Shown piece after piece: positions 34,532 through 42,833 of a DNA stretch of 64,000 nucleotides. A program made the translations under genes and the position numbers. Below the pieces are notes generated by a model. It saw only the letters and a program-made list of their open reading frames with translations, had not been told where the DNA came from and did no database searches. Source of the stretch: Sphaerisporangium album (GTDB lineage Bacteria; Actinomycetota; Actinomycetes; Streptosporangiales; Streptosporangiaceae); the NCBI RefSeq assembly GCF_003323745.1, contig NZ_QOIL01000014.1, positions 1 to 64,000 of the forward strand. The letters run 5' to 3'. Within the stretch, counting starts at the first letter, position 1. Each line of letters begins with the position of its first letter.

Positions 34532-36772
34532 TCAGGCGAGCGCGATGTCCTGCGGCCGCAGCGGGATCCTCGCCAGGGGCAGGCCGGTGGCGGCGCGGAC
34601 GGCGGCGACGATCGCGGGGGTCGAGGACAGCGTGGGCGGCTCGCCCGCGCCGCGCAGCCCGTACGGCGCGGCGGGGTCGGGGTTCTCCAGGATCGACAGC
34701 CTCATGGGCGGCATGTCGAGGATCGTCGGGATCAGATAGTCGGTGAATGACGGGTTGAGCACCCGCCCGTCCCGGACCTGGATCTCCTCCATGAGCGCGA
34801 GCCCGAGCCCCTGGGCCGAGCCCCCGTGGATCTGCCCCTCCAGCGCGACCGGGTTGAGGATCTTCCCGACGTCCTGGACGGCGGCCAGCTCGACCACCTT
34901 GACCAGCCCGAGCTCGACGTCGACGTCCACCACGGCCCGGTGCACGCACAGCGCGAGCTGGGTGTGGGAGTCGCCCTGGCCGGTGACCGGGTCCATGGGG
35001 TAGGTCGGCCGGTGGCGGTACTCGCGGGTCTCCTCTATGGGCCCGAACCGCTCCACCAGCTCTTCGCGCGTCAGCTCGGCGTGCTCGGCGCGCAGCTTGT
35101 CCAGGCGTTCGCGCACCGCCTCGCACGCGGTCTTGACCGCGCCGCCGGTCACGTACGACTGCCGGGACGCCGAGGAGGAGCCCGCCGAGCCGACGGAGGT
35201 GTCGGCCGGGGCGACGGTCACCCGCTCGACTCCGAGCTCGGTGCGGGCGATCTGCGCCTGGAGCGTGACGAGTCCCTGGCCGACTTCGGCCGCCGCCGTG
35301 TGCACCTGCACGTGCAGCGCGCCGCCGAGCAGTTCGATCTTCACGCGGGCCGTCGAGTAGTCGTCGAAGCCCTCGGAGAAGCAGATGTTCTTGATGCCCA
35401 CCCCGTACCCGACGCCCCGGCGCACCCCCTCGCCGTGCGTCGTCTGCGCGACCCCCCCGGGCAGCGACCGCAGGTCGGACGAGGGCTCGCCGGCGGGCAG
35501 CGGCATCGCGGCGAGCTCGCGCAGCATGCCGGCCAGCGGCGCGGGGGAGTCGATGACCTGGCCGGTCGCCAGCCGCGACCCCTGGGAGACGGCGTTGCGC
35601 ACGCGGATCTCCACCGGGTCGATCCCGCACGCCTCGGCCAGCCGGTCCATCTGCGACTCGTACGCGTAGCAGGCCTGCACGGCGCCGAAGCCGCGCATCG
35701 CGCCGCACGGCGGGTTGTTGGTGTACGCGCCGTAGGCGTCGATCTCGATGTTGGGCACCTCGTACGGGCCGACGCCGAGCGAGGCGGCGTTGCCGACGAC
35801 GGCGGGGGAGGAGGAGCAGTACGCCCCGCCGTCCAGGACGATCTCGGCCCTGACGTGGACGAGCCTGCCGTCGCGGGTGGCGCCGTGCTCGTAGCGCATG
35901 CGCGCGGGATGCCGGTGGACGTGGCCGAAGAACGACTCCTCGCGGCCGTACACCATCTTCACCGGGCGGCCCGTGCGCAGGGCCAGCAGCGCGGCGTGGA
36001 TCTGCATCGACAGGTCCTCGCGGGCGCCGAACGCGCCGCCGACCCCGGCGAGGGCCAGGCGCACCTTGTCCTTGGGCAGGTCCAGGCAGGGGGCGATCTG
36101 GTCCTGGTCCACGTGCAGCCACTGTGTCGCTATGTACAGGTCGACGCCGCCGTCCTCGGCGGGCACGGCGAGGCCGGACTCCGGGCCGAGGAACGCCTGG
36201 TCCTGCATCCCGACCTCGTACTCGCCGGTCACCACGACCTCGGCGGCCCCGGGCGTCCCCGCCTCGGCGATCCTGCCCACGCGGACGGGCTGGTGGCGCA
36301 CGACGTTGCCGCCCGGCCCCACCTGCGGCGACTCGGGGTCGAACAGCGCGCGCCGCGCGTCGGTGACCGCCTCGCGGATCTCGTACTCGACCCGGACGGC
36401 CGCCGCCGCGCGCCGGGCGGTCTCCGGATGGCCGGCGGCGACGATCGCCACGGCCTCGCCCTGGTAGCGGACCTGGTCGATGGCCAGCACCGGCTGGTCC
36501 TTGTGCTCCAGGCCGTAGAACTTCCTGCCCGGCACGTCCTCGTGGGTGAGCACGGCGTGCACGCCCGGCATCGCCAGCGCGGCGCTCACGTCGATCGCGC
36601 GGATCCACGCGGACGGATGCGGGCTGCGCACCGTGGCGCCCCACAGCATGTCCGCCAGGTACAGGTCCGAGGAGTAGGCGAACTCGCCGGTCACCTTCAG
36701 CGTGCCGTCCGGCCGGGGCGCGCTCGCCCCCACCCCCTGGTCCTGGCTGCGGCTGCTCGCGGTGTGGGTCAC
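34532..36772 (-). CDS. Xanthine dehydrogenase-type molybdopterin-binding subunit
   Basis: A 746-residue large subunit of the xanthine oxidase family. Recognisable parts are the N-terminal a/b hammerhead, GVGGAFGARED and AMRGFGAVQ loops that hold the molybdenum cofactor, and the catalytic Glu region GLRGAGEPPTLSS. Such proteins hydroxylate purines or other heterocycles, and need an FAD subunit and a 2Fe-2S subunit. Neither lies in the flanking genes, so the partners must be elsewhere or lost. It is divergent from a PucR regulator, which supports a role in purine breakdown. Confidence 0.85.
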   Translation of the reverse strand: MTHTASSRSQDQGVGASAPRPDGTLKVTGEFAYSSDLYLADMLWGATVRSPHPSAWIRAIDVSAALAMPGVHAVLTHEDVPGRKFYGLEHKDQPVLAIDQVRYQGEAVAIVAAGHPETARRAAAAVRVEYEIREAVTDARRALFDPESPQVGPGGNVVRHQPVRVGRIAEAGTPGAAEVVVTGEYEVGMQDQAFLGPESGLAVPAEDGGVDLYIATQWLHVDQDQIAPCLDLPKDKVRLALAGVGGAFGAREDLSMQIHAALLALRTGRPVKMVYGREESFFGHVHRHPARMRYEHGATRDGRLVHVRAEIVLDGGAYCSSSPAVVGNAASLGVGPYEVPNIEIDAYGAYTNNPPCGAMRGFGAVQACYAYESQMDRLAEACGIDPVEIRVRNAVSQGSRLATGQVIDSPAPLAGMLRELAAMPLPAGEPSSDLRSLPGGVAQTTHGEGVRRGVGYGVGIKNICFSEGFDDYSTARVKIELLGGALHVQVHTAAAEVGQGLVTLQAQIARTELGVERVTVAPADTSVGSAGSSSASRQSYVTGGAVKTACEAVRERLDKLRAEHAELTREELVERFGPIEETREYRHRPTYPMDPVTGQGDSHTQLALCVHRAVVDVDVELGLVKVVELAAVQDVGKILNPVALEGQIHGGSAQGLGLALMEEIQVRDGRVLNPSFTDYLIPTILDMPPMRLSILENPDPAAPYGLRGAGEPPTLSSTPAIVAAVRAATGLPLARIPLRPQDIALA

Positions 36773-36888
36773 ACCTGCAGTACATCAGCCGCCTTCTGGT
36801 GGGCCAATGGACACCGGCGCGAAACGCCCGGGCCGCCCGGTGGGGCCGCTTGTAGGTTCGTCCAAATCCGCCCGGTTAGCCTGGGACG

Positions 36889-38541
36889 GTGCTGATACGT
36901 GAGCTGGTGGCGATGGACGAGCTCCGCCTGGCCCTGCTGTCGGACCCCGGGCACCTCGACCGGGGGTTCGCCGGCGTGCACATCACCGACCTGCCCGACC
37001 CCGGCCGCTACCTGTCCGGCGGGGAGCTGGTGCTCACCGGGCTCATGTGGCGGCGCGACCCGGCGGACTCCCGTCGTTTCGTCCAGGCCCTCGCCGCGGC
37101 GGGCGTCGCCGCGCTCGGCGCCGGACGGGCCCTGCTCGGCATGGTGCCCGAGGATCTGGTCGAGGCATGCCGCGAGCACGACCTCCCCCTGCTGGACGTG
37201 CCGGAGGAGACCTCGTTCCGCACGCTGGCCGAGAGGGCGCAGGCCCACGCCGGCGTGGCCGCCGATCCGCGCGGCGCGCTCGGCCGGCACCGGCGCATCG
37301 TCGCCGCCGTCGCCGAGGGCACCGGCCTGGACGAGCTGTTCGCGCTGACCGCGCAGGAGCTCGGCGTCAGCGGCGCCGTCGTCTCGGCGGCGGGCGGGGT
37401 CGTCGCGGGCCGGCTCGACGGCGACCTCGCGGCCCGGCTCGCCCGCGAGTACCTCACCGCGCCCCGGCTGCCGCACGTCGCGCGCACGCCGGAGGGGACG
37501 TTCACGCTGTTCGCCGTGGACCGCGCGCACCGGGCGGCCGGCTGGGCGCTGGTCTTCGAGTCCGACCTGACGGACCAGGCGGACATGGGGTTCGAGCTGG
37601 CGGCGTGCGTCGCGCTCGCCCGCGGCCGCACGGAGGAGGGGCGCCGGGTGGAGCGGCGGCTCGCCGAGCAGCTCATCGGCCTCGCCTCGTCGGCCGCCCC
37701 GGATCCCGCTGAGCTGGCCGCGCGCCTGCGCACCTGTGGCGTCGGCGCGGAGGAGCCGTATGTCGTGGTCACCGCGACGGTGGCGCGGCCCGGGGCCACG
37801 GACGGGCCGGACCCGTCCGCGCTGGGCGGGCAGGTGATCGAGGAGTTCCTGGAGCGCAGAGTGGTGGCGGCCGTGGGCGCGGACGGCGCGGTCGCGCTCG
37901 TCCCCCTGCGCGTGTTCGCGGCGCCGGACGATGAGAGGCGGCACGGGAAGGGGGAGGAGACCGAGAAGAGATCGAAAGTGGACGGCCCCGGATCCGGGAC
38001 AGAAACGCGAGTGCGTAGTACCGTGCAGGTGCAAGGTCGATCGCATGTGCAACGTAGTGTGCACGTGATTTTGGGCCTACTGGGGAGTGGGGTGGCGGCG
38101 CTCCAGGCCGTCCCGCGGATGCGGGTCTCAGTCGGCGTGAGTGCCGTTCTGAACGGTCCCGGAGCCGTCCGCGGTGGCGCCGAAGAGGCGGGCCACGCGA
38201 GACGTCTCGCTGAGGCGCGAGGTGGAGGGGTGGTGACCAGCGATGAGATCTATACTCACGCTCTCCTGCTGGCCACCGTTCCCGACGATGTGCGGCGATC
38301 GTTCGCGGATCGGATCTTGGAACCGCTCTTCGAGTACGACCGGCGTCACCAATCGGAGTTGGTCCGTACCCTTGGGGTGTTCCTCGACTGTGCCGGATCT
38401 TGGAACGGCTGTGCCGCCCGTATGCACGTGCACGTCAACACTGTGCGATACCGCATCCGCCGGGTGGAGGACCTTACGGGACGGAACCTGTCCTCAATGG
38501 CGGACAGGGTGGACCTTTTCCTCGCGTTACGTGCCTGCTGA
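36889..38541 (+). CDS. PucR family transcriptional regulator
   Basis: A 550-residue regulator. The N-terminal PucR purine-sensing region reads VHITDLPDPGRYLSGGELVLTG (residues 30-52), a CdaR GGDEF-like domain sits in the middle, and the C-terminal HTH_30 reads HVHVNTVRYRIRRVEDLTG. The GGDEF-like part is interrupted at about residues 347-385 by a charged, low-complexity insertion (DERRHGKGEETEKRSK). From ~37.93 kb onward base and codon usage turn less GC-rich than in the first half. Divergent from the xanthine dehydrogenase subunit gene, which it probably activates. Confidence 0.88.
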   Translation: MLIRELVAMDELRLALLSDPGHLDRGFAGVHITDLPDPGRYLSGGELVLTGLMWRRDPADSRRFVQALAAAGVAALGAGRALLGMVPEDLVEACREHDLPLLDVPEETSFRTLAERAQAHAGVAADPRGALGRHRRIVAAVAEGTGLDELFALTAQELGVSGAVVSAAGGVVAGRLDGDLAARLAREYLTAPRLPHVARTPEGTFTLFAVDRAHRAAGWALVFESDLTDQADMGFELAACVALARGRTEEGRRVERRLAEQLIGLASSAAPDPAELAARLRTCGVGAEEPYVVVTATVARPGATDGPDPSALGGQVIEEFLERRVVAAVGADGAVALVPLRVFAAPDDERRHGKGEETEKRSKVDGPGSGTETRVRSTVQVQGRSHVQRSVHVILGLLGSGVAALQAVPRMRVSVGVSAVLNGPGAVRGGAEEAGHARRLAEARGGGVVTSDEIYTHALLLATVPDDVRRSFADRILEPLFEYDRRHQSELVRTLGVFLDCAGSWNGCAARMHVHVNTVRYRIRRVEDLTGRNLSSMADRVDLFLALRAC

Positions 38542-38549
38542 GTTACAAA

Positions 38550-38681
38550 TCAGCAGCACCAGACGGCCGGCGCCTGGTCAAGGGAAGACGTAGAAGCTTC
38601 TGTAGTCGTAGCATTGGCTCCAACGCCGATGAGCGTCATAAAGCAGACGCTCAGGGCGGACAGTACAAAGCGGCGGCGCAT
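38550..38681 (-). CDS. Small secreted peptide precursor (43 aa), candidate signalling peptide
   Basis: A 43-codon frame from ATG 38681 to TGA 38550-38552, too short for common ORF cut-offs. It reads like a classic pre-peptide: MRRR, a hydrophobic core FVLSALSVCFMTLIGVG, then the signal-peptidase site A-N-A before T25. The predicted mature part is TTTEASTSSLDQAPAVWCC, with a Trp-Cys-Cys end. A GGGAG ribosome site stands six bases upstream. It lies convergent to pucR and divergent, by 52 bp, from an XRE-TPR regulator. GC at third positions is 67% (29 of 43), lower than in neighbours, so coding is likely but not certain. Confidence 0.62.
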   Translation of the reverse strand: MRRRFVLSALSVCFMTLIGVGANATTTEASTSSLDQAPAVWCC

Positions 38682-38733
38682 GGGGGACTCCCGTTCGTGG
38701 CAGTTGTCGGGTTTACATCTTCAAGGAGTGCCG
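38682..38733. promoter_or_regulatory. 52-bp divergent control region peptide / XRE-TPR
   Basis: The short gap carries the ribosome sites of both genes (GGGAG for the peptide on the minus strand, AAGGAG for the regulator) and a GGGACTCCC palindrome at 38684-38692. It is too short for two separate promoters, so the promoters must reach into the coding regions. This makes mutual control by the XRE protein likely. Confidence 0.45.
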
Positions 38734-40035
38734 GTGACCGGTCAAGATCTCATAGGGCAGCGAATCAAGACGATTCGCCGCCAGCGTGGTCTTTCTCAAG
38801 CGCAGCTGGCGCACCCTGAACTCTCGGACAGCTATGTATCCCTGATCGAGAGTGGCAAGCGTACGCCGACGGCCGCCGTTCTGGAACTGCTCGCGGCGAA
38901 GCTTGATTGCTCCCTAACGTATCTGATCAACGGTGTCACCGCCGAACAGATGCAGGACCTTGAACTGGGCCTCGGGTACGCCACCATGGCGCTCAACAAC
39001 GGCGAGGTCTCGGAGGCCCGGCGGCGGTATGCCGAGCTTCTGGAGGACGGCAGCCTCGCCGGCCTGACCGGCCTGCGCCAGCAGGCCGAGTACGGCTATG
39101 CCCTCGCCAGCGAGGCGTGCGGCGACCTCGACGAGGCGATCACCGTCCTGTGCCGCCTGCGCGAGTCCGCCACCGAGCCGCTGCCCGCCGAGCGTGCGAT
39201 CGCCGTGGCCATCGCGCTGTCGCGCTGCTACCGCGACCGCGGCGACCTCGCCGACGCCGTGCGCGTCGGCGAAGAGGCGATCATGGGCCCCGCCAGGCCC
39301 GCCAGGCCCGCCTGGAACGACGACCTCGTCGAGCTCGGCGCCACCCTGCTCGCCGCCTACACCGTGCGTCACGACATGCTCAGGGCCCGGCAGTTCGCCG
39401 GAGAGCTGCTGTCGGCCGCCGAGATGCTCGGCACCCCCCGCGCCACCGTCGCCGCCTGCTGGAACGCCGCCATGGTCGCCGAGCGCACCGGGCGTGGCGA
39501 GGAGGCCCTCGTTCTCGGCGAGCGCGCCCTGGCCATCCAGTCCGAGACCGGCGAGCCCCGCAATCTCGCCCGTCTGCGGCTGGCCCTCGCCATCCTGCGG
39601 TCCCGGGTGCGCCCCGCCGAGGCCGAGACGTGCCGCGGGCTGTTCCTGCGCAGCGAGCAGGAGCTGACCGAGACCTTCGGCAGCGCGGTCGACCGCGCGC
39701 GGTGCGCGATCGAGCTGGCCAAGGTCGAGATGGTCCTCGGCAACCCCGACCAGGCCCTCGTGTACGCCCGCAAGGCCGGTGACCTCGTCCAGGACCGTCC
39801 CCGGGCGCTGCGTGCCGACGCCCAGCTGCTGCTCGGCAACGCCCTGCTCCTGCTCGGGCAGGTCGAGCAGGCCGCCGCCGAGCTGGCCGCGGCCGAAGAC
39901 CTCCTCGCCTCCGCGCCTGCCACGGGCGAGGTGGCCGAGGGCTGGCTGACCGCCGCCACGGCGCTGGAGCGCCTCGACGACGGCGAGGCCAGTGTGACCG
40001 CCTACCAGCGCGCCCTCGCCTGCGTCGGCTTGTGA
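38734..40035 (+). CDS. XRE regulator with TPR repeats (RRNPP-like architecture)
   Basis: A 433-residue cytoplasmic protein. The N-terminal HTH_XRE is at about residues 9-62 (IKTIRRQRGLSQAQLA, SYVSLIESGKRTPT). The rest is a long run of TPR-type helical hairpins (ARRRYAELLEDGSLAGLTG, AYTVRHDMLRARQFAGELL, LGERALAIQSETGEPRNLA, QALVYARKAGDLVQ). HTH plus TPR is the layout of RRNPP receptors that bind short imported peptides. GTG 38734 with AAGGAG five bases upstream was chosen over an in-frame ATG at 38614. The adjacent divergent pre-peptide gene is the natural ligand candidate. Confidence 0.85.
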   Translation: MTGQDLIGQRIKTIRRQRGLSQAQLAHPELSDSYVSLIESGKRTPTAAVLELLAAKLDCSLTYLINGVTAEQMQDLELGLGYATMALNNGEVSEARRRYAELLEDGSLAGLTGLRQQAEYGYALASEACGDLDEAITVLCRLRESATEPLPAERAIAVAIALSRCYRDRGDLADAVRVGEEAIMGPARPARPAWNDDLVELGATLLAAYTVRHDMLRARQFAGELLSAAEMLGTPRATVAACWNAAMVAERTGRGEEALVLGERALAIQSETGEPRNLARLRLALAILRSRVRPAEAETCRGLFLRSEQELTETFGSAVDRARCAIELAKVEMVLGNPDQALVYARKAGDLVQDRPRALRADAQLLLGNALLLLGQVEQAAAELAAAEDLLASAPATGEVAEGWLTAATALERLDDGEASVTAYQRALACVGL

Positions 40036-40194: not shown

Positions 40195-40785
40195 ATGAGG
40201 ACTTCTCCGCTCGCGGCCCTGCTCGCGTTCGTCGCCGCCGTCGTGCTGGGCACCGCCGTGGCGTCCCCGGCGCTGGCCCACACGGCCCTCAAGAGCAGCG
40301 ACCCCAAGAAGGGCGCCACCGTCGAGACCCTCGACAAGGTGACGCTGACCTTCACCGAGAGCGTGAAGTTCCCCGTCGTGCTGGTGCGCGACGCGGAGGG
40401 CCGCGACCACAAGGACGGCAAGCCCAAGACCGACGGGCCGACGGTCACGCAGAAGGTCGCCGGCACTCTGCCCTCCGGCAAGTACACCATCGCCTGGCGC
40501 GTGGTCTCCGAGGACGGTCACCCCATCGAGGGCGAGATCCCGTTCACCGTCAAGGCCCCCGCCGCGAGCACGCCCTCGCCCACCCCCACGCCCCCGGCCG
40601 CCTCGCCGTCCCCCACCGAGAGCCCCATCGCCGTCGCCCCCACGCCGCCGCCGTTCACCCCGACCCCGGTGGCCGAGCAGGGGGACGCGGGCTCGGGCGG
40701 CATCCCCGCCTGGGTGTGGATCGCCGTCTTCGGCGTCGCCGGCATCGGCATCGGCACGATGATCAGCCTGCGGAAGAAGCCGTGA
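40195..40785 (+). CDS. copC: CopC domain copper-binding protein
   Basis: A 196-residue protein. The signal peptide ends in ALA-H, leaving an N-terminal His as the first copper ligand, as usual for CopC. The beta-sandwich domain includes TLTFTESVKFP and IAWRVVSEDGHPIEGEIPF with a second His ligand. A Pro/Thr/Ser linker and a C-terminal membrane anchor ending in RKKP follow. It hands copper to or from the CopD protein encoded next; the stop overlaps the next GTG start. The -10-like TAGCCT lies just upstream and the leader is short. Confidence 0.9.
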   Translation: MRTSPLAALLAFVAAVVLGTAVASPALAHTALKSSDPKKGATVETLDKVTLTFTESVKFPVVLVRDAEGRDHKDGKPKTDGPTVTQKVAGTLPSGKYTIAWRVVSEDGHPIEGEIPFTVKAPAASTPSPTPTPPAASPSPTESPIAVAPTPPPFTPTPVAEQGDAGSGGIPAWVWIAVFGVAGIGIGTMISLRKKP

Positions 40786-42833
40786 GCGCACGGCTCCGCC
40801 TCGCCCTGGCCGGCGTGGGCGCCGCGCTGGCCGGCCTGGTCGTCGCCATGGTCGCGGGCGGCGCGGCCACCCCCCGGATCATCCCGGGCCTCCCCGACGA
40901 GGGGACGCTCACCCGCTGGGCGCTGCCCCTGTCCAAGCTGACCATGGACGTCACCGGCGTGCTCACCGTCGGCCTGCTGCTCATGGCGACCGTCTTCCTG
41001 CCGAACGACAAGGGCCTGCTCGGCAAACCCGCCCAGGGCTACGTCAGGGCCGCGGCGTGGACGGCGCTCGTCTGGGCGCTGGCCGCCGCGTCGTCCCTGG
41101 TCTTCAGCCTGTCGGAGACGCTCGGCACACCCGTCACCGAGGTGCTCGGCGGCAACGAGCTGACCAGCTACGCCAGCCAGGTGCCGCAGGGCATCGCGCT
41201 CACGCTGGTGGTGCTGTTCGGCACCGCCATCGCGCTGTTCTCGCGCGGCGCGATCACCGCGGGCGCCTCCGGAGGTCTGCTGGTCCTGGCGCTCGCCACG
41301 CTGATGCCCCCCGCGCTGACCGGCCACTCCTCCTCCGCGCCCAACCACAGCCTGGCCACGACCGGCGTCGCGCTGCACCTGGTGGTGCTGTCGCTGTGGG
41401 TGGGCGGGCTCCTGCTGCTGGTCGCCCACGCCGTGCGCGGGCAGCCCCACCTCGACCTCGCCGCCCGGCGCTTCTCGCGCATGGCGCTGTGGTGCTTCGC
41501 CGGGACCGGCCTGTCGGGCGTGTTCAGCGCGCTGGCCCGCCTGAGCGCCGCCGGCGAGCTGTTCACCACCTCCTACGGCCTGATCATCGTCGCCAAGGGG
41601 GCCGCCTTCGCCGGTCTCGGGGCGCTCGGCTGGTGGCACCGCCGACGCACGCTGCCCGAGCTGACCGCGGGCCGGCCCGGGGCGTTCACCCGGCTCGCCG
41701 GGGTCGAGGGCCTGATCATGCTGGTGGCGGTCGGCCTCGCCGTCGCCCTCTCGCGCACCGCCCCGCCGCCGCTGGACCTCCCCGTCGACCGCGCCTTCGA
41801 GCTGCTCGGCTACCTGATCCCGCCGCCGGTCTCGCTCGCCAACCTGGCCACCCTGTGGTGGTTCGACCTGTTCTTCGCGGTGGTCGCCGCGGCGCTGGCC
41901 GGCCTGTACGGCGCGGGCGTCGTACGGCTGGCCCGCCGCGGCGACCGCTGGCCGATCGGACGCACGATCAGCTGGGGCGTGGGCGTGCTGCTGCTGGTAC
42001 TCGCCACGCAGAGCGGCGTCGCCCGCTACGCGCCGGTGCTGTTCAGCGTGCACATGGCCGAGCACATGGTCCTCTCGATGCTCGTGCCGATCTTCCTGGT
42101 GCTCGGCGCGCCGGTGACGCTGGCCCTGCGCGCGCTCAAGCCCGCCGCGCGGCGCGGCGACCGCGGCCCGCGCGAGTGGATCACTGTGATCCTGCACAGC
42201 CGCGTCACCAAGGTCGTCACGCACCCCGCCGTCGCGACGGCCCTGTTCGTGACGTCCACCTACGCGCTGTACTTCACGCCGCTGTTCGCCTCGGCGATGG
42301 AGGAGCACCTCGGCCACATCGCGATGACCCTGCACTTCCTGCTCAGCGGAAGCCTGTTCTTCTGGGTGGTCATCGGGGTGGACCCGGCGCCGACCCGGCT
42401 GCCGCACATCGCGCGGCTGCTGCTGCTGTTCGTCACCATGCCGTTCCACGCGTTCTTCGGCATCGCGCTCATGAACATGGGCACGGTGATCGCCGCCGAC
42501 TGGTACGACCAGCTCGGCCGCACGTGGGGCGCTAGCGGGCTGTCCGACCAGAGCACCGGCGGCGGCATCGCCTGGGCCTTCGGCGAGATCCCCACGCTGA
42601 TCGTCCTGATCGCGATCGCCTTCCAGTGGTACCGCGCCGACGACCGCTCGGCCCGGCGCGCCGACCGCCGCGCCGACGCGCGCGCGGCGAAGGTCGGCGG
42701 CAGCGGCGACGTCGAGCTCGACGCCTACAACGACTACCTGGCCAGGCTCAGCAAGATGGACGGCGCCGGCGGGCCGGAGAAGGCCGGGAGGGCCGGGAAG
42801 GCCGACAAGATGGACAAGAGCCGCCGGGATTAA
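40782..42833 (+). CDS. CopD / CtaG (caa3 assembly) fusion membrane protein
   Basis: A 683-residue polytopic protein. The first ~330 residues form a CopD-type domain (LHLVVLSLWVGGLLLLVAHAV). The second half is a CtaG-like cytochrome c oxidase assembly domain (FSVHMAEHMVLSMLVPIFLV; FFWVVIGVDPAPTRLPHIAR; MPFHAFFGIALM), with membrane histidines and methionines suited to copper. It probably moves copper into the cytoplasm or to cytochrome oxidase. The C-terminus is a charged Lys/Arg/Asp-rich tail. The GTG start overlaps the CopC stop. Confidence 0.9.
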   Translation: MSARLRLALAGVGAALAGLVVAMVAGGAATPRIIPGLPDEGTLTRWALPLSKLTMDVTGVLTVGLLLMATVFLPNDKGLLGKPAQGYVRAAAWTALVWALAAASSLVFSLSETLGTPVTEVLGGNELTSYASQVPQGIALTLVVLFGTAIALFSRGAITAGASGGLLVLALATLMPPALTGHSSSAPNHSLATTGVALHLVVLSLWVGGLLLLVAHAVRGQPHLDLAARRFSRMALWCFAGTGLSGVFSALARLSAAGELFTTSYGLIIVAKGAAFAGLGALGWWHRRRTLPELTAGRPGAFTRLAGVEGLIMLVAVGLAVALSRTAPPPLDLPVDRAFELLGYLIPPPVSLANLATLWWFDLFFAVVAAALAGLYGAGVVRLARRGDRWPIGRTISWGVGVLLLVLATQSGVARYAPVLFSVHMAEHMVLSMLVPIFLVLGAPVTLALRALKPAARRGDRGPREWITVILHSRVTKVVTHPAVATALFVTSTYALYFTPLFASAMEEHLGHIAMTLHFLLSGSLFFWVVIGVDPAPTRLPHIARLLLLFVTMPFHAFFGIALMNMGTVIAADWYDQLGRTWGASGLSDQSTGGGIAWAFGEIPTLIVLIAIAFQWYRADDRSARRADRRADARAAKVGGSGDVELDAYNDYLARLSKMDGAGGPEKAGRAGKADKMDKSRRD

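What the first reader, a model, noticed from the sequence alone, without database searches (positions are those of the whole stretch)
38550..40035. Divergent pre-peptide gene and XRE-TPR receptor: a possible actinobacterial RRNPP-type signalling module
Seen: a 43-codon ORF with a good ribosome site, an RRR-hydrophobic-ANA signal peptide and a short tail ending in Trp-Cys-Cys, lying 52 bp from and divergent to an XRE regulator with TPR repeats. Known: RRNPP receptors (Rap, PlcR, NprR families) pair an HTH with TPRs and bind peptides from a neighbouring secreted precursor. Inference: the peptide is exported, processed and re-imported to control the regulator, making this a quorum-sensing or self-sensing pair in a high-GC actinomycete. 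Weak point: the ORF's GC3 (67%) is below that of its neighbours.
Basis: partly seen in the sequence, partly recalled or inferred. Interest (0 to 1): 0.86.

Follow-up and report, generated by a model that had tools for sequence, protein, structure and literature searches.

The report
Actinobacterial secreted-peptide and TPR-regulator pair
Next to a DNA-binding regulator, this soil actinomycete carries a tiny gene for a secreted peptide ending in two cysteines; comparable pairs sit side by side in many families of the phylum, which suggests an unrecognised peptide signalling system in bacteria thought to signal mainly with small molecules.

Summary
In detail: a 43-codon ORF (38550-38681, minus strand) with ribosome site, signal peptide and Trp-Cys-Cys end lies 52 bp from, and divergent to, an XRE-TPR regulator (38734-40035). 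It is not chance. All 34 distinct regulators at 55% identity or more (the window's included; one family) have a divergent signal-peptide ORF 50-62 bp away; 27 end in Cys-Cys, the other 7, one clade, mostly in Trp-rich tails. Of 97 class-level regulators with fetched DNA, 78 have a candidate peptide next door (70 with Cys-Cys), in three layouts; 17 have none. In 25 loci of other classes, 15 have 28-35-aa ORFs with Trp/Phe-Pro and/or Cys-Cys tails. Cys-Cys ORFs number 42 per 59.5 kb beside the regulators, 2 per 493 kb farther off, 0 per 125.5 kb at 30 NsdA-type controls. Cys-Cys receptors keep a TPR asparagine (68 of 73) resembling the RNPP peptide clamp; the Trp-tail clade lost it. Most likely a peptide-signalling pair working like Firmicutes RRNPP systems. 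Export, processing, re-import, binding and quorum function are inferred. Ten open-access paper searches listed no actinobacterial case.

The parts
38550..38681 (-). Peptide precursor ORF, 43 aa plus stop: basic n-region, hydrophobic core, ANA/T region, tail ...LDQAPAVWCC
   Evidence: corresponding ORFs
38688..38692 (-). Ribosome site GGGAG of the peptide ORF, 6 nt before ATG
   Evidence: 3-4 of the 5 GGAGG bases before the ORF at all 34 close regulators
38553..38558 (-). Terminal Cys-Cys codons (hallmark of the precursor family)
   Evidence: 73 of 126 tabulated regulators have a neighbouring precursor with CC at or within the last few residues
38682..38733 (.). 52-bp intergenic region between the two start codons; both promoters and any operator must overlap here or reach into the coding regions
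   Evidence: alignment of 34 corresponding regions
38713..38720 (+). Partly conserved element TTACATCT upstream of the regulator, possibly its -10 region
   Evidence: consensus (AcAtct); promoter role inferred
38723..38728 (+). Ribosome site AAGGAG of the regulator
38734..40035 (+). XRE-TPR regulator (433 aa plus stop), proposed cytoplasmic receptor
39460..39465 (+). Codons of W243-N244 on a TPR A helix; candidate peptide-clamping Asn
   Evidence: W243 invariant and N244 at least 90% in A2; N244 in 68 of 73 CC-associated receptors
39562..39564 (+). Codon of N277, Asn on the next A helix, replaced in the Trp-tail clade
   Evidence: 59 of 73 CC receptors, 0 of 7 in the Trp-tail clade

Best explanation
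The two genes are a peptide-signalling pair that works like an RRNPP system. The short ORF makes a precursor that is exported by its signal sequence and cut to a short C-terminal peptide ending, here, in ...AVWCC. The peptide is taken back into the cytoplasm, probably by an oligopeptide (Opp-type) transporter, and binds the concave face of the TPR superhelix of the neighbouring XRE regulator, with Asn244 as a likely clamp on the peptide backbone. Binding changes DNA binding by the HTH domain at the shared 52-bp divergent region, giving a feedback loop, and possibly at other targets. Shown: the ORF, its conservation, the recurring CC end, recurrence of the pair in three layouts, and correlated difference of tail type and receptor residues in one clade. 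Inferred: export, processing, import, binding, direction of the effect, and whether it senses neighbours or self.
For: (1) Divergent signal-peptide ORF at 34 of 34 distinct regulators at 55% identity or more, the window's included; 27 end CC. (2) Of 97 distinct class-level regulators with fetched DNA, 70 have a neighbouring precursor with CC at or near the end (60 divergent, 9 convergent, 1 co-directional) and 8 more a precursor with another, mostly Trp-rich tail. (3) In 25 loci of other classes, 3 divergent ORFs end in CC or CCG and 12 have Trp-Pro or Phe-Pro tails such as GYPWPK, NWPHH, SFPWGGT; lengths 28-35 aa. (4) Density of CC+signal-peptide ORFs: 42 per 59.5 kb next to the regulators (39 of 60 loci), 2 per 493 kb farther away, 0 per 125.5 kb at 30 NsdA-family XRE-TPR loci. 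(5) Gene neighbours differ between families; regulator and peptide are the common part (19 loci). (6) PlcR matches the receptor profile at E=1.8e-13 over one stretch, profile 3-190; PlcR-PapR and Rap-phi3T are among the Foldseek hits. (7) N244: 68 of 73 CC receptors, 0 of 7 in the Trp-tail clade; 8 of 10 strict switch sites lie on TPR A helices, Fisher p=0.02. [quoted passage not shown] (8) Four f21 loci carry two CC precursors flanking one regulator. (9) dN below dS. (10) The host has 14 matches to SBP_bac_5 importer proteins.
Against: 17 of 97 class-level regulators have no candidate peptide by my rules, and of the 29 loci tabulated, 10 have none (6 of 25 in other classes, 4 of 4 f20 loci); so the receptor family also exists without a peptide next door. 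The receptor itself is patchy: 62 of 394 class genomes at E 1e-25, 32 of 396 phylum genomes at E 1e-40. The Trp-tail clade is one evolutionary event, so the residue switch is not independent replication. N244 is also kept in 11 of 28 regulators then scored 'none' and in 7 of 11 Trp/Phe-Pro ones. The looser set of 30 switch positions is not enriched on A helices (16 of 30, p=0.25). Signal peptides were judged by my own hydrophobicity and charge rule, not a trained predictor. Peptide dN exceeds the regulator's in 14 of 14 pairs (e.g. 0.28/0.80 against 0.10/0.35), and one pair is near neutral (0.37/0.39). TPR matches are common: LGN and designed TPR proteins rank above PlcR by fold and designed ones by profile. 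No expression, peptidomics or binding data.
Confidence: 0.72

Rival explanations
1. The peptide is an output, not a signal: a small exported or membrane peptide (antimicrobial, envelope or stress peptide) whose gene is controlled by the adjacent regulator, which senses something else.
For: Adjacent divergent regulators often control their neighbour (general knowledge); very short intergenic regions fit this. 17 of 97 related regulators lack a peptide.
Against: The end of the tail is the conserved part, and in the 28-35-aa precursors little else follows the hydrophobic stretch, too short for most effectors; layout varies (divergent, convergent, co-directional) although only the divergent one shares a promoter region; receptor TPR residues differ together with tail type in one clade.
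Confidence: 0.17
2. The Cys-Cys tail is a metal or redox sensor: the exported peptide binds copper or another metal, or forms a vicinal disulfide, and the regulator reads its state; copC/copD next door would be targets.
For: CopC and CopD-CtaG genes lie directly downstream in the window; by ORF start and position CopC-like and CopD-like ORFs also follow the regulator in L106, L107 and L109, and a CopD-like ORF in L110 and L124. Vicinal Cys can bind soft metals (general knowledge).
Against: The neighbours look different in other families that keep the CC peptide, and related peptides without Cys exist (GYPWPK, NWPHH, GWGWPG), so metal binding is unlikely to be the common function.
Confidence: 0.07
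3. A small membrane peptide acts in cis on the regulator (membrane sequestration) without export or re-import, or the pair is a toxin with its repressor.
For: Precursors of 28-35 aa consist mostly of one hydrophobic segment.
Against: Basic N-termini predict the conserved tail outside the membrane, away from a cytoplasmic TPR protein (positive-inside rule, general knowledge). In the f21 genomes listed there is one regulator match each at E 1e-25, which does not look like a spreading addiction module.
Confidence: 0.03
4. Chance ORF.
For: GC3 below that of the regulator (67% against 90%).
Against: Conservation and controls; it would need intact ORFs with a CC end to recur by chance in many lineages.
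Confidence: 0.01

Closest known systems
PlcR-PapR (RRNPP, Bacillus cereus group)
   Same: XRE-type HTH followed by TPRs; small secreted precursor next to the regulator (recalled); PlcR is the best-scoring natural chain in the profile search (E=1.8e-13, profile 3-190) and a Foldseek hit (rank 13).
   Different: About nine TPR hairpins against fewer in PlcR (recalled); precursor usually divergent; tail ends in CC or Trp-Pro; other phylum; no PlcR-type model among the NCBIfam or Pfam matches.
Rgg-SHP and ComR-ComS (RRNPP, streptococci)
   Same: Very short hydrophobic precursors with the signal in the last residues, often divergent to the receptor gene (recalled).
   Different: No Cys-Cys hallmark that I recall; among the solved chains listed, only HTH-sized ComR fragments (68-69 aa) matched (60 of 137 hits shown).
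NsdA-family and RamB-type XRE-TPR regulators of actinobacteria
   Same: XRE plus TPR-like architecture; NsdA-family genes in the same genomes; weak NCBIfam matches.
   Different: Scores far below cut-offs (25.1 of 75 bits; 24.5 of 700 bits); no CC peptide in 125.5 kb around 30 NsdA-family loci.

Membership tests
RRNPP(A) peptide-signalling systems | Cytoplasmic receptor with HTH and TPR repeats | tested here: met
RRNPP(A) peptide-signalling systems | Adjacent gene for a small exported propeptide | tested here: met
   signal peptide by hydrophobicity and charge rule only
RRNPP(A) peptide-signalling systems | Conserved TPR Asn that holds the peptide backbone (RapF Asn227; PMC3601957 passages) | tested here: inconclusive
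   N244 on an A helix in 68 of 73 CC receptors, but structural equivalence with RapF Asn227 was not tested and 5 of 73 lack it
[quoted passage not shown]
   No such family among the Pfam or NCBIfam matches; profile hit to the PlcR chain. The published subfamily profiles were not available
RRNPP(A) peptide-signalling systems | Mature peptide binds the TPR domain and changes receptor activity | not testable with these tools
   needs binding or reporter assays
RRNPP(A) peptide-signalling systems | Re-import by an oligopeptide permease | not testable with these tools
   14 SBP_bac_5 matches exist in the genome, which is common (11 of 14 control genomes) and not diagnostic
NsdA family regulators (NF053720) | Score above the curated cut-off | tested here: not met
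   25.1 bits against 75

The most novel reading that the evidence does not exclude
A phylum-wide peptide-signalling class in Actinomycetota: XRE-TPR receptors paired with tiny secreted precursors whose signal lies in the last five to ten residues, in two tail codes, Trp-Pro and Cys-Cys, with receptors changing TPR groove residues when the code changes. The C-terminal Cys-Cys could make the active signal a vicinal disulfide or thiol form, so that it reports redox or oxygen state as well as cell density.
Probability: 0.45. Interest if true: 0.93.

Novelty: new variant of a known kind. Interest (0 to 1): 0.85.

Why it matters
The two RRNPP surveys that I looked into covered Firmicutes and viruses (PMC10075063, passages) or Firmicutes (PMC9765709, passages), and PMC10075063 states that actinobacterial signals are typically enzyme-made small molecules. 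If this pair works as proposed, actinomycetes, the main antibiotic producers, have gene-encoded peptide signals with short, readily synthesised active ends. That is directly testable by adding synthetic peptides such as AVWCC or GYPWPK to cultures, and could give a handle on silent gene clusters or development. The conserved Cys-Cys end raises a chemical question (disulfide, thiol or modified ending).

Tried and rejected
Copper-sensing reading: suggested by CopC/CopD next door, weakened because neighbours look different in other families and Cys-free tails exist. Regulon by operator: 18 of 20 f21 intergenic regions aligned share the palindrome TGTCATGACA over the regulator start; the motif CAATANTGTCATGAC occurs without mismatch once in each of 6 f21 genomes, at the pair itself, while sites with 1-2 mismatches number 26 against 19 for the reversed-pattern control, so no wider regulon was found. 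I saw no clear palindrome in the Streptosporangiaceae intergenic regions by eye. A dedicated third gene (protease, transporter, modifying enzyme) was looked for in 19 loci by position and ORF start only; I saw none recurring across families; Pfam was run only on the window's own neighbours. Enrichment of all 30 switch sites on A helices: not significant. The paralogue in the same genome (G000:C62:262741, L101) has no peptide by my rules. A peptide-receptor co-fold was not possible with the tools. Literature: ten searches listed no actinobacterial RRNPP-type pair; several lists were cut (25 of 604 papers, 15 of 24, 15 of 16, 12 of 345, 12 of 15,983, which was too loose to be of use); the library has no bioRxiv and lacks most subscription journals, and I read no paper in full (passages of PMC10075063, PMC3601957, PMC9765709; all others as search listings).

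Full report
What is there. The ORF at 38681..38550 (-) encodes MRRRFVLSALSVCFMTLIGVGANATTTEASTSSLDQAPAVWCC. GGGAG stands 6 nt before its ATG and its GC3 is 67.4%. The regulator at 38734-40035 (+) is 433 aa, with HTH_3 at residues 11-64 and TPR matches behind it. The AlphaFold2 model, made from the window protein and L001-L007 only, has mean pLDDT 84.4 and pTM 0.63: an HTH and then helices that I count as nine TPR-like hairpins. The window lies in a genome of the genus of Sphaerisporangium corydalis: G007, listed as same genus, carries its hit on a contig of the same length, 272,017 bases, as the named S. corydalis record.

Conservation in the family. I collected homologous regulators and oriented them by tblastn. 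All 34 distinct regulators at 55% identity or more (the window's own included; all from the window's family) have a divergent ORF of 41-51 codons whose start lies 50-62 bp from the regulator start, preceded by 3-4 of the 5 GGAGG bases. Twenty-seven end in Cys-Cys. The other seven (L023, L024, L043, L044, L045, L048, L049), one clade with support 100, end in LGPLNNAE, GWGWPG, GWVYPG, GWNHPG, PWQWPI, PWGYPI and AWNGPW while the signal peptide stays recognisable. Nonomuraea gerenzanensis, a named record not among the 34, has the same layout with ...MTGDAGCC. In 14 of 14 hand-picked pairs the peptide's dN is below its dS, though in all 14 its dN is higher than the regulator's; in 55 pairs of 11 f21 peptides the median dN/dS is 0.34.

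Beyond the family. Of 97 distinct class-level regulators with fetched DNA, 60 have a divergent precursor with CC at or near the end, 9 a convergent one just 3' of the regulator, 1 a co-directional one, 7 the divergent non-CC precursors above, 1 (an f20 genome) a co-directional ORF ending IEWP, 2 are cut by contig ends, and 17 have none by my rules. Some end in CC plus one or two residues (WCCG, WCCLV). Four f21 loci (L060, L064, L066, L068) carry two CC precursors, one on each side of the regulator. A profile of 42 receptors (A2) found the same family in other classes of the phylum: 32 of 396 genomes at E 1e-40 or better, the window's own and 6 f20 genomes of the same class included. Of the 29 loci tabulated from that search, 25 are from other classes and 4 from f20. 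In the 25, 3 have CC or CCG tails (APWPPCC, APWPHCC, APFPGCCG), 12 have Trp-Pro or Phe-Pro tails such as GYPWPK, GFPWPK, NWPHH, AGWPKH and SFPWGGT (L189 added), 4 have other short ORFs (three of them co-directional, at the 3' end of the regulator), and 6 have none; the 4 f20 loci have none of these tails.

Controls. With one rule (30-85 aa, hydrophobic stretch near the N-terminus, basic n-region, at least 3 of 5 SD bases, CC in the last four residues) I counted 42 ORFs next to the regulator (within 500 bp) in 39 of 60 long loci (59.5 kb), 2 in the remaining 493 kb of the same loci (one of them, at L081, looks like a genuine member 1.6 kb away), none in 125.5 kb around 30 NsdA-family XRE-TPR genes, and one, the finding, in the whole window. 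The rule was fixed after the first peptides were known, but the near/far contrast uses the same rule on the same DNA. Terminal CC codons are TGC-TGC in 53 of 58 and other codons in 5, as expected for a protein-level constraint in GC-rich DNA.

Neighbours. In the window, a PucR-type regulator and a molybdenum hydroxylase gene lie on one side and CopC and CopD-CtaG genes on the other. By ORF start and position the full order appears in L106 and L107; CopC-like and CopD-like ORFs also follow in L109, and a CopD-like ORF in L110 and L124. In the loci of other families the flanking genes look different while regulator and peptide stay together (19 loci). That makes a role tied to copper or purines unlikely for the system as a whole.

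Receptor. The profile matches PlcR at E=1.8e-13 over one stretch (profile 3-190, chain 2-189), which includes HTH and TPRs; designed TPR proteins score higher. Foldseek puts PlcR-PapR at rank 13 and a Rap-pheromone complex at rank 44, behind LGN-type and designed TPR proteins. W243 is invariant and N244 at least 90% conserved in A2. Over 126 receptors, N244 is Asn in 68 of 73 with a CC precursor, 0 of 7 in the Trp-tail clade, 7 of 11 with Trp/Phe-Pro tails and 11 of 28 then scored without peptide; N277 is Asn in 59 of 73, 0 of 7, 0 of 11 and 5 of 28. Of ten positions conserved in the CC group and replaced in the Trp-tail clade, eight (among them A240, N244, N277, A322, L367) are on TPR A helices (Fisher p=0.02); a looser set of 30 is not enriched (16 of 30, p=0.25). 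In RapF the strictly conserved RNPP Asn227, also on a TPR, binds the peptide main chain and its mutation impairs binding (PMC3601957, passages). Whether N244 is the same position was not tested.

How it most likely works. The signal peptide exports the precursor; a protease releases the short tail; an oligopeptide importer (14 SBP_bac_5 matches in the genome) brings it back; the tail binds the TPR groove; DNA binding by the HTH changes at the shared 52-bp region. In the f21 family the palindrome TGTCATGACA spans the regulator start in 18 of 20 aligned loci, and the longer motif CAATANTGTCATGAC is found without mismatch only there in each of six genomes, which points to local feedback. Export, cutting, import, binding and the sign of the effect are inferred.

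What is known. PMC10075063 (passages) screened Firmicutes and viral genomes and says that actinobacterial signals are typically small molecules; PMC9765709 (passages) reports RRNPPA proteins in Firmicutes. Ten paper searches listed no actinobacterial case; several lists were capped, and bioRxiv and most subscription journals are outside the library. I therefore call it a new variant of a known kind: it works like RRNPP by anatomy, with membership open until binding is shown.

Limits.

Noticed in passing
40195-42833 (+): CopC-domain and CopD/CtaG-domain genes directly downstream of the regulator; by ORF position and start the arrangement recurs in L106, L107 and L109.
   Followed up: partly
34532-38541: Molybdenum hydroxylase (xanthine dehydrogenase-like, minus strand) next to a PucR-type regulator, whose 3' end lies 8 bp from the 3' end of the peptide ORF.
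   Followed up: no
L060, L064, L066, L068 (f21): Two different CC-tailed precursors flank one regulator; in three of four the residue before CC is the same in both (Tyr/Tyr, Phe/Phe, Phe/Phe; L064 has Phe/Tyr).
   Followed up: partly
f21 loci, e.g. L064, intergenic region: Palindrome TGTCATGACA spans the regulator ATG in 18 of 20 aligned f21 loci; the motif CAATANTGTCATGAC is found without mismatch once in each of 6 genomes searched.
   Followed up: yes
G000:C62:262741-264024 (L101): A 31-32% identical XRE-TPR paralogue without a neighbouring peptide by my rules; L095 and L102 of the same clade lack one too.
   Followed up: partly
L126, 5001-7108 (Streptomyces goshikiensis plasmid): XRE-TPR homologue in a region with sugar-nucleotide and P450 genes, followed by two small co-directional ORFs; one has a signal-peptide-like start but no CC or Trp-Pro end.
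   Followed up: no
G000, whole genome: 25 matches to the NsdA family of TPR-like regulators in one genome at E 1e-30; ten other genomes of the genus have 8-23.
   Followed up: no
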